Assembly: GCA_903813345.2 (NCBI GenBank)
Contig: CAIIXF020000005.1
Span: 36,957,375-37,021,374 of the forward strand
Length of the DNA stretch: 64,000 bases
Source: Owenia fusiformis
Taxonomy: Eukaryota; Annelida; Polychaeta; Sabellida; Oweniidae
Direction of reading: 5' to 3'
This document shows, piece after piece, positions 19,401 through 22,400 of the stretch. Within the stretch, counting starts at the first letter, position 1, and each line of letters starts with the position of its first letter. The notes beneath the pieces are model-generated. The model saw only the letters and a list, made by a program, of their open reading frames with translations. It was not told where the DNA came from and searched no databases. Both the position numbers and the translations under genes were made by a program.

Positions 19401-22400
19401 TAAGCCATGTAGTGTACGACTGTATTAATATGATTACCTTATTTGAGCCTGGCATAGTGACAGCTTGGACAAACTCTATCTCCTCATCCATGACATAATC
19501 ATAGTCCTTCTCCTGAAAAATAAACAAATATGTATGTTATGATCATGAACTGCTTTCAAACAGACCACAAGACTGAAAAAGATGAACTTCTATTCTAGTA
19601 TATTATGTAGTTTCTGACACTCTCAAATTCATTTATCAATTCCACGCTCTATCGTTTATTTACATAAATAGGGCATTTATTCCTGGAATGGTACTTTAAC
19701 ATATGTGATCAGGAATTGCTTACTTTTGCTTTTTGGCTCAGGTTTGCTTCTTTATATCTTTTCCTACCTTTCTAGCCTGTTTTGCATCTTTGGCCCCAAA
19801 CTTCATGACTGCAGCTGACAAGTGTTCTTCCTCCCATTTCTTCTGCTCATAGTTCATGCCTTTCTCCAGTGAATCCTCCACATAGCCCTCCTGAGGCTTC
19901 TGCAAACAGAACAGTCAGAAATACATTACACTTAAATACAATTCTACAAAAAGACCAGTCAGAAATACATTACACTTAAATAAAATTCTACAAAAAGACC
20001 AGTCAGAAATACATTACACTTAAATAAAATTCAACAATAGACTAAATATTTCCTAATGGGGAATTGTATACTTTGTAATCATCAGTTCAGATTTCAGTGT
20101 AGCTGTGTATCTCATTTCAAAATACAAATTCTAGATATTCAAACAGATTCAATGATTCAAATGTTGTTCATGTGTGATGTTTCTTTTGATTCCTCTGTTA
20201 TTTCCCTATAGTTGATAATTATGAGTATTAAGTTGTGTCATAGACTATCAATGGACAGAATATAGTACAATATAAAGTATGTTCAAACATGTTCACTTAC
20301 GACATCATCTTTTGGCATATAATATCTGTCAACTTTCTCAACATCTCCTGCCCTTCTGTGGTCCTTGGCCAATTTTAGCACTTTACGTTTGTACTCTAAC
20401 TCCTTCTTCTCCCTTGCAGTTAATCTATAATGTGAATGAACCAATTGTTGAACTGATACAAAATGTTAAAGGTGCATACAGTAACAAATGAAATGTATTG
20501 TATGTTCATGTGATGTAACTATACAAGGGGTGAGCCAGATATCTATATAAAAATGCTCTCCTTTCTTTATTCTCAAAAGTTGAATAATGATTTTAGTCCA
20601 AAAAGAGGATGGGTTAGGGCATAGAATGCAAAAATGAATAATATATCTATGCAGTATTTTTTTCATGGGAGAGGATATTGGTAACCATGGAAATTGTACC
20701 TGGAATAATGAGTATTTATCAGTTTTTATGAATGTAACATCAATAGACTCAAATTAAATGGAGGAATTTATGTGATGTTCTTCTGCCCTTGTATAACATA
20801 TATAATATGTATAAAAATGTCCTTTCTAAATCTTGATTTTGAGATGCATAAGATAATACTATTCTTACTTTGAGTCTCCAAACAGATATTCTTCATCTTG
20901 TACTTCTGCCTCTAAATCTTCCAGTTTATCTTTTTGCCGCTTCTTCAAGTAGCTCATACGAGATTCCTTCCTTATCTCTGGTACAATCTTTTCTCTGTCA
21001 AGGGCCTCCAGTTGGAGCCTCTTGGATGCCTCTTCATAGGCCTAAATAACAAATAGGAATATAAGATTATTCCATCAATGTTTACATGTACATGCTTCCC
21101 TGTATGATGTCAGAGATCAAACATTCCCAAAACTTAGGGATGCCACATTTCTTATTTACTGTCCCATCATTTAGGATTAATGAAATGTCAAGGGTGAAAT
21201 ATACACATGTACTGAATAAATGAAACCAAAAGTACCTTTTTATCTGATTTAGACTGTATTTTTCTTGTACTCTCTTTATCCTTTTCAAGCATTCTTTTAG
21301 CAAAGGCATCACGCTCTTCAAGATCTTCTCTCCTCTCACGTTCCATCTTGTCCAGCTCATCTTCTGATGAATCAGCTGTCTTCTTCTTACTTCTTCTGTA
21401 ACATCAAGTTGAATATGTAAGTATTTTATATTGTTTAGTATTCAGTTCTGGAGGCTTAATTCATAGCAGTCATCTGAGATTAAATCATGGAGATTAATAA
21501 TTTACACAACAAGCCATCATTTGCTTTGCCAGGTACATTTATTATAGTGGATATCCTTCGACTATGATTGTGAGTAGCACAATTTTCAGCTTCAAATTTT
21601 TACCTACAAATCTGAATTTATATACAATATCTGCACAAGAAAGCATAGGAAACGAGTAAAGATATTATTATCATGATGAATTGATGTAAACAAAAACTTC
21701 ATATCACAAAAAATGTACACCAGGATGTTCTACTATTTATCCTCAGTGATGTCCCGGGATTTTTTCTTAAAAGGGTGTAAAATCTCAATTTAGCCATTTT
21801 CTGTAAAAATGCCTGATATTTTGAATATTTACCTTTTGACAGGCTCACTGTCACTATCACTATCTGTTGTAGTCTTTCTCCTTGTATTTGCCTTTCTTCG
21901 GTCCTTTTTACTTTTCTGAAAAAGCAGCACTTCAGATTTTATTTAGTCAGAGATAGAAAAACTTATATTTACAACAGTTGTCCAAAAATTATTGGAACTT
22001 TTGACCTGGTTTAATATCAAAGGACAGATTAGTAAATAAATTGTTTTAGCTAGATTCAGATGGCACTTTTACCAGTATCAAAAGCAAATAGCAAAAAAGC
22101 AAAACTCTTGGCGATAGAAGCATATGCTTTTCATGATGGATTGTCAATAATCTTTCTAAAATATCACCATCTTCACCAGTTTTTGTGAAAAATACTCGAG
22201 GCATTATAAATAAGCTGACTGATTCATATTCACATTAAGAAGATGGCATATGTTTCAAGCATGTGTCATATGTTTCAAACCTATCTCATATGTTCCAAGC
22301 CTGTATCATTTGTTCCAAGCCTGTATCATATGTTCCAAGCCTGTATCATATGTTTCAAGCCTGTATTATATGTTTCAGGCCTGTGTCATATGTTTCAAGC

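What the first reader, a model, noticed from the sequence alone, without database searches (positions are those of the whole stretch)
19898..20041. DHX16 exon-7 acceptor duplicated in an exact 44-bp array
The repeat unit begins 2 nt inside the exon and includes the acceptor. Copies at +44 and +88 keep an AG with a strong pyrimidine tract (TTTTTGTAG on the minus strand); the fourth has lost the AG. With the arrays at 2330-2503, 22247-22411, 50361-50545 and 60620-61075 this makes five minisatellites in one window that start at a splice junction. That suggests a recurrent process in which short tandem duplications spanning splice sites expand into intronic arrays and multiply splice signals.
Basis: partly seen in the sequence, partly recalled or inferred. 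Interest (0 to 1): 0.75.

Follow-up and report, generated by a model that had tools for sequence, protein, structure and literature searches.

The report
Tandem repeats that copy splice sites
In this animal genome, short stretches of DNA that span the edge between a coding exon and an intron are copied head to tail, sometimes more than twenty times, so that one splice site is accompanied by a row of look-alikes; the same kind of structure is already described in lancelets, and here it looks fairly common.

Summary
The array is real: 44-bp spacing, 3.2 copies, covering the acceptor of exon 7 of DHX16 on the minus strand.

I tested the pattern away from the window, in genes picked by protein family. 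125 introns were resolved, with 24 tandem arrays. Ten reach a junction, nine of them (in nine introns) with at least 2 nt of exon inside, against 3.4 expected if one repeat unit fell at random (P=0.0003). Measured by covered bases there is no excess: 13.1% of intron bases but 4.1% of junctions lie in arrays.

Unit ends are spread evenly around junctions, so duplication does not seem to start at the splice site. The best reading is ordinary tandem duplication across an exon edge, later expanded, with the exon-side copy presumably still used. Amphioxus papers call such structures "mirages". This genome has 12 chromosome-sized contigs, which fits the annelid Owenia fusiformis and argues against amphioxus. 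What is added: probably a second lineage, a first frequency (9 of 125 introns) and a possible three-fold excess. Whether the extra sites are ever spliced is untested.

The parts
19768..19899 (-). DHX16 exon 7 ([10 protein letters not shown]...); acceptor AG at 19901-19900, first exon base 19899, phase 0
19898..19941 (-). repeat copy 1: 2 nt of exon 7 plus 42 nt of intron with the genuine acceptor TTCTGTTTGCAG and a CTGAC branch-point-like motif (motif recalled, not tested)
19942..19985 (-). repeat copy 2: acceptor-like CTTTTTGTAG 44 nt upstream; its use would give a stop after 3 codons
19986..20029 (-). repeat copy 3, identical to copy 2; acceptor-like AG 88 nt upstream; its use would give a stop after 3 codons
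20030..20037 (-). 8-nt stump of a fourth copy, AG absent
2333..2497 (+). 39-bp array (4.4 copies) across the acceptor of a tyrosine-phosphatase exon (first exon base 2468), ~30 nt of exon inside; three further AG copies upstream
22247..22411 (-). 20-bp array (8.2 copies) beginning at the donor of DHX16 exon 2 (GT at 22411-22410); none of the 4 copies aligned keeps GT
50360..50478 (+). 30-31-bp array (3.9 copies by TRF, degenerate copies to about 50545) across a donor (GT at 50388) of an exon presumed to belong to the gene with the SCA7 domain near 45.8 kb (ATXN7-like); 28 nt of exon inside; GT kept in the 3 copies aligned
60620..61073 (-). ~29-bp array across the acceptor of an exon of an unidentified coiled-coil gene (first exon base 60622, from frame and splice signal only), 3 nt of exon inside; repeated AG ends visible by eye, one copy aligned
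   Evidence: gene unidentified

Best explanation
A segment with one end in the exon and one end in the intron was duplicated in tandem at the DNA level, then expanded by unequal exchange or slippage. If the exon-side copy of the splice site stays in use, the protein is unchanged and the other copies count as intron, so the change is tolerated and can drift to many copies. In DHX16 the unit carries a complete acceptor (branch-point-like motif, pyrimidine tract, AG). Shown: the arrays, the copied signals, the recurrence, the even spread of unit ends around junctions. Inferred: the duplication mechanism, near-neutrality, and that the exon-side copy is the one spliced.
For: Arrays and copied signals. 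The junction lies inside the unit, with an exon share evenly spread from 0 to 0.90, as random end points predict. The genome search with the DHX16 unit listed only this locus. The unique part of the exon follows only the exon-side copy in the two cases read out: the last of 17.9 kinesin copies runs on into ...NKPVVNRDPQAAEILRLKQL while an upstream copy runs into NKPVAL*, and likewise USP. Using the DHX16 copies at -44 or -88 stops the frame after 3 codons. Signal letters AG/GT in copies are kept about as often as other positions (145 of 150 against 1503 of 1586; the count includes a USP case misplaced by one base and is dominated by near-identical copies of two genes), so no sign of selection for or against copied sites. 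Two papers state that such arrays do not disturb normal splicing in amphioxus (PMC3087553, PMC3902484, passages).
Against: Random placement predicts about 3.4 junction-reaching arrays and 10 were seen, so something beyond tolerance may act. No RNA data: which copy is spliced is not shown. Splice-site score does not single out the exon-side copy (PTP exon copy 8.7, upstream copies 10.4, 8.7, 8.7). The USP copies stay in frame and open, so they might be coding.
Confidence: 0.68

Rival explanations
1. Exon edges are hotspots for tandem duplication in this genome, so junction arrays arise more often than intron-interior ones through a mutational bias.
For: 10 of 24 arrays against 3.41 expected, P=0.00026; 9 of 24 with >=2 nt of exon against 3.18, P=0.0007; without the kinesin array 9 of 23 against 2.92, P=0.0004; batch 1 6 of 16 against 1.82, P=0.003; batch 2 4 of 8 against 1.58, P=0.04. 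Post hoc: among arrays with unit >=30 bp and >=89% matches 8 of 9 reach a junction, against 2 of 15 others.
Against: By base coverage no excess (13.1% of intron bases against 10 of 242 junctions). A null using whole-array length gives a weaker excess (10 against 4.42, P=0.0017). Three of the ten come from one gene. If real exons were missed inside long inferred introns, the expectation would rise. Unit ends do not cluster at the junction.
Confidence: 0.35
2. The excess is a detection effect: the exon-side copy is conserved, so old junction arrays stay recognisable longer.
For: 3 of 10 sample arrays have 2.0-2.2 copies and are not found when the junction copy is removed.
Against: 7 of 10 sample arrays, the USP array and the five window arrays still score 92 or more without the junction copy (ATXN7 redone because one search had not removed its junction copy); with >=2.5 copies required of all arrays the excess stays at 7 of 16 against 1.99, P=0.0008.
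Confidence: 0.12
3. The extra splice sites are used or help splicing (alternative sites, NMD switches, or better recruitment of the spliceosome) and are kept by selection.
For: Copies keep good sites: 3 extra copies of a donor scoring 10.7 (C4), 22 of one scoring 10.9 (C12), 3 of an acceptor scoring 8.7 (L066).
Against: Signal dinucleotides are not clearly kept better than the rest. DHX16 use would truncate at once. The DHX16 exon-2 array has lost GT in the 4 copies aligned.
Confidence: 0.12
4. Assembly artefact: repeat numbers inflated by the assembler.
For: Copy numbers of near-identical units (C12, C4, kinesin) cannot be checked without reads (copies).
Against: Copies differ from each other in many of the arrays, and the pattern shows in unrelated genes.
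Confidence: 0.04

Closest known systems
'Mirages': minisatellites spanning exon-intron boundaries in amphioxus Adh3, globin, troponin C and PGBD5 genes (PMC3087553 passages; PMC3902484 passages; the original Canestro 2002 paper is not held)
   Same: Tandem repeats of 10-160 bp that include an acceptor or donor; many but not all copies keep AG/GT; both 5' and 3' boundaries affected
   Different: Probably another lineage (12 chromosome-sized contigs); frequency measured in sampled introns; up to 17.9 and 22.9 copies, against 3 and 6 in the globin case; splicing and length polymorphism not testable here
Intron gain by tandem duplication across an intron-exon boundary (potato RdRp, PMC4974935, abstract and outline)
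   Same: The duplicated segment crosses an intron-exon boundary and copies the splice signals
   Different: There a new intron arose; here no new intron is shown, the copies lie in an existing intron

Membership tests
amphioxus 'mirages' | tandem repeat spanning an exon-intron boundary | tested here: met
   five window arrays reach a junction (one of them, DHX16 exon 2, from the intron side only); strict straddling in 9 of 24 sample arrays
amphioxus 'mirages' | unit of about 10-160 bp | tested here: met
   units 20-159 bp; published range
amphioxus 'mirages' | many, not all, copies keep AG/GT | tested here: met
   145 of 150 signal letters kept over the copies aligned; GT lost in the DHX16 exon-2 array
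amphioxus 'mirages' | normal splicing undisturbed | not testable with these tools
   no RNA data
amphioxus 'mirages' | length polymorphism, somatic instability | not testable with these tools
   one assembly, no reads
amphioxus 'mirages' | known range is cephalochordates (range, not structure) | tested here: inconclusive
   12 contigs of 31.9-62.2 Mb make 477.5 of 498.3 Mb; amphioxus n=19-20 recalled.
intron gain by tandem duplication | a new intron inside a former exon | not tested
   no orthologous gene structures compared

The most novel reading that the evidence does not exclude
This genome has a continuing, exon-edge-biased tandem duplication process that has put splice-site arrays into roughly one intron in fourteen (9 of 125 sampled), independent of amphioxus, giving the spliceosome a large natural set of repeated identical sites from which the exon-side one must be chosen.
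Probability: 0.35. Interest if true: 0.7.

Novelty: new member of a known kind. Interest (0 to 1): 0.48.

Why it matters
If the sampled frequency held genome-wide (an extrapolation), this species would offer many natural experiments in which several near-identical donors or acceptors compete, which bears directly on how exons are defined. It would also show that mirages are not a lancelet oddity, and supply raw material for intron gain and exon change. It warns annotators too: profile hits to such arrays look like exon families.

Tried and rejected
Identification by mitochondrial COX1: no match listed. A first intron finder recovered only 39 introns because it rejected anchors that overran exons; replaced. 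A home-made gene predictor had two faults (lost phase-0 acceptors; zero-length exons). The corrected one reproduced 49 of 69 pair-inferred introns exactly; of the other 20, 12 agreed on both outer junctions but had extra exons inside, and 8 disagreed on at least one junction (counted by eye). It was not used for counting, and some of those extra exons may be real. The ubiquitin-hydrolase batch gave only 4 of 20 candidate introns and no arrays. The AMP-binding search gave 14 matches, no exon pairs used. The coiled-coil gene at 60-63 kb stayed unidentified. A dispersed-element origin of the DHX16 unit is not supported; units of the other arrays were not searched.

Limits of the sample: batch 1 used 140 of 190 match rows (rows outside the 28 regions I chose to fetch were dropped; I chose compact loci by eye); 115 candidate introns gave 69, of which 66 passed the score cut. 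Batch 2 used 38 of 39 cullin, 109 of 144 kinesin and 4 of 15 ATPase rows; pairs of neighbouring matches with a small profile gap and at most 3 kb apart gave 56 pairs, 55 resolved. 17 of the 18 kinesin repeat rows were left out; adding 17 other dropped kinesin rows gives no further pair. The kinesin repeat was visible to me before I wrote the pairing rule, so one search also gives the result without it. Its intron was ended at the first copy; ended at the last copy its chance value falls from 0.48 to 0.10. Batch 3 used 25 of 73 rows. Of the ten junction-reaching arrays one (C10, 21 bp) only comes within 3 nt and is an AT-rich repeat; three of the ten lie in one gene.

Full report
What is there. 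The array at 19898-20037 is real. It has 44-bp spacing, 3.2 copies and 94% matches. On the minus strand copy 1 is the 3' end of an intron plus the first two bases of the next exon...TTTCTGACTGTTCTGTTTGCAG|AA. Copies 2 and 3 are identical to each other, differ from copy 1 at 4 of 44 positions, and keep an acceptor-like end CTTTTTGTAG|AA. The fourth copy is an 8-nt stump without AG. The exon is the seventh in my model of DHX16 (two tiny exons put in by the predictor left out of the count). Identity rests on a PDB match named DHX16 with E=1e-265. The junction is phase 0...MPKDDV joined to [10 protein letters not shown]. Of 17 DHX16 introns checked, 17 have GT donors and 16 have AG; the seventeenth acceptor was placed by hand, evidently a base or two off. 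If the acceptors 44 or 88 nt upstream were used, translation would stop after three codons. A genome search with a 78-nt piece listed this locus only.

The other four arrays. Each reaches a junction. The 39-bp array at 2333-2497 spans the acceptor of a tyrosine-phosphatase exon (domain E=1.6e-20). The 20-bp array at 22247-22410 starts at the donor of DHX16 exon 2. The 31-bp array at 50360 spans a donor of an exon that I presume belongs to the gene with an SCA7 domain (E=1.1e-22). The 29-bp array at 60620-61073 ends 3 nt inside an exon of a coiled-coil gene that I could not identify. The last two junctions rest on frame and signal. The window holds 24 arrays under the filter used here. Two further arrays in DHX16 introns lie 8 and 43 nt from a donor and do not reach it.

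Test away from the window. I searched the genome with Pfam families (CCT chaperonins, myosin heads, adaptins, cullins, kinesins, P-type ATPases, ubiquitin hydrolases), fetched gene regions chosen by exon matches, and inferred introns from neighbouring exon matches, frame and splice signals. L049 was fetched larger and L073 was fetched because the match lists showed repeated exons; L049's intron was in the sample by rule, L073's array was not counted. 66 + 55 + 4 = 125 introns resulted; 24 arrays lie in the first 121 and none in the last four. Ten reach a junction within 3 nt. If a segment of one unit is placed at random over positions that overlap the intron, 3.41 are expected, P=0.00026. Requiring at least 2 nt of exon: 9 against 3.18, P=0.0007. 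Requiring 2.5 copies: 7 of 16 against 1.99, P=0.0008. Without the kinesin array: 9 of 23 against 2.92, P=0.0004. Batch 1 alone: 6 of 16 against 1.82. Batch 2 alone: 4 of 8 against 1.58, P=0.04 (all). With whole-array length as the random segment the excess is weaker: 6 of 16 against 2.23 in batch 1, 10 of 24 against 4.42, P=0.0017, together. By bases covered there is none: 9,092 of 69,619 intron bases (13.1%) are in arrays, but 10 of 242 junctions (4.1%), because a few arrays are very long. Both facts should be kept in mind. The ten come from eight genes.

Striking cases. In an adaptin-family gene on C12 a 151-bp unit with 89 nt of exon and a strong donor is present 22.9 times over 3,464 bp. 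In a kinesin gene on C2 a 159-bp unit with the acceptor and about 127 nt of exon is present 17.9 times at 97%; only the last copy runs on into the unique part of the exon. In a USP gene on C9 a 150-bp unit is present 11.2 times with the frame open throughout, so there the copies could even be coding.

Where the units end. The exon share of the unit over 15 arrays (five window, nine sample, USP) runs evenly from 0 to 0.90 (KS P=0.52; nine sample arrays alone P=0.51). A process that starts at the splice site would give values near 0. This speaks for random duplication end points, one in the exon and one in the intron. A detection bias from the conserved exon-side copy does not explain multi-copy cases: 7 of 10 sample arrays and 5 of 5 window arrays are still found when that copy is removed (ATXN7); the three that are lost have about two copies. 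Signal letters in the copies are kept about like other letters, 145 of 150 against 1503 of 1586, so there is no sign that copied sites are either kept or purged. A post hoc look suggests that recent, long-unit arrays are the ones at junctions: 8 of 9 against 2 of 15.

How it most likely works. Tandem duplication across an exon edge leaves the protein intact as long as the exon-side copy is used, so such duplications are tolerated like intronic ones and can expand. Why the exon-side copy would win over copies with equal scores is not answered by sequence; exon definition is the textbook candidate (recalled). Whether duplication is also more frequent at exon edges is open; the sample hints at about three-fold.

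What is known. Tandem repeats over exon-intron boundaries were named 'mirages' in amphioxus Adh3 and also reported in globin, troponin C and PGBD5 genes, with statements that they do not disturb splicing and that repeat number varies (PMC3087553 and PMC3902484, passages; the 2002 Adh paper is not held). Duplication across an intron-exon boundary has also produced a new intron in potato (PMC4974935, abstract). I saw no genome-wide count of such arrays in the listings; those searches cover open-licence papers only, several listings were cut (for example 20 of 69, 10 of 198), and apart from the papers named here I read listings, not the papers.

Which animal. Twelve contigs of 31.9-62.2 Mb make up 477.5 of 498.3 Mb (sum). 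Owenia fusiformis is published at 505.8 Mb with 12 chromosome-scale scaffolds (PMC9977687, passage). That is a fit, not proof. It argues against amphioxus with its 19-20 chromosomes (number recalled; one search gave a listing only).

Verdict. It is a new, apparently frequent occurrence of a known kind of structure.

Noticed in passing
G000:C9:37986009-37994334 (match rows): Twelve tandem matches to the same myosin-head exon (profile positions about 18-84) in one myosin locus, which look like a cluster of alternative exons.
   Followed up: no
L073 (G000:C9:8170700-8174300): USP gene: 150-bp unit of intron tail plus about 128 nt of exon, 11.2 copies, frame open across the copies, so the array may be partly coding.
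   Followed up: partly
window 11896-15908: 4-kb intron of DHX16 that holds open frames not belonging to DHX16, one of them repeated on the other strand (12223-12405 minus, 14708-14890 plus); possibly a mobile-element insertion.
   Followed up: no
window 8688-8886 and 10249-10441: Two similar 20-bp-unit arrays with near-identical ORFs beside them (8321-8527 and 9897-10103 differ by one residue), suggesting a duplication about 1.6 kb apart.
   Followed up: no
window 249-2450 minus: 733-aa open frame that looks like reverse transcriptase (by eye, no domain search) and whose upstream end reads through the phosphatase-exon array.
   Followed up: no
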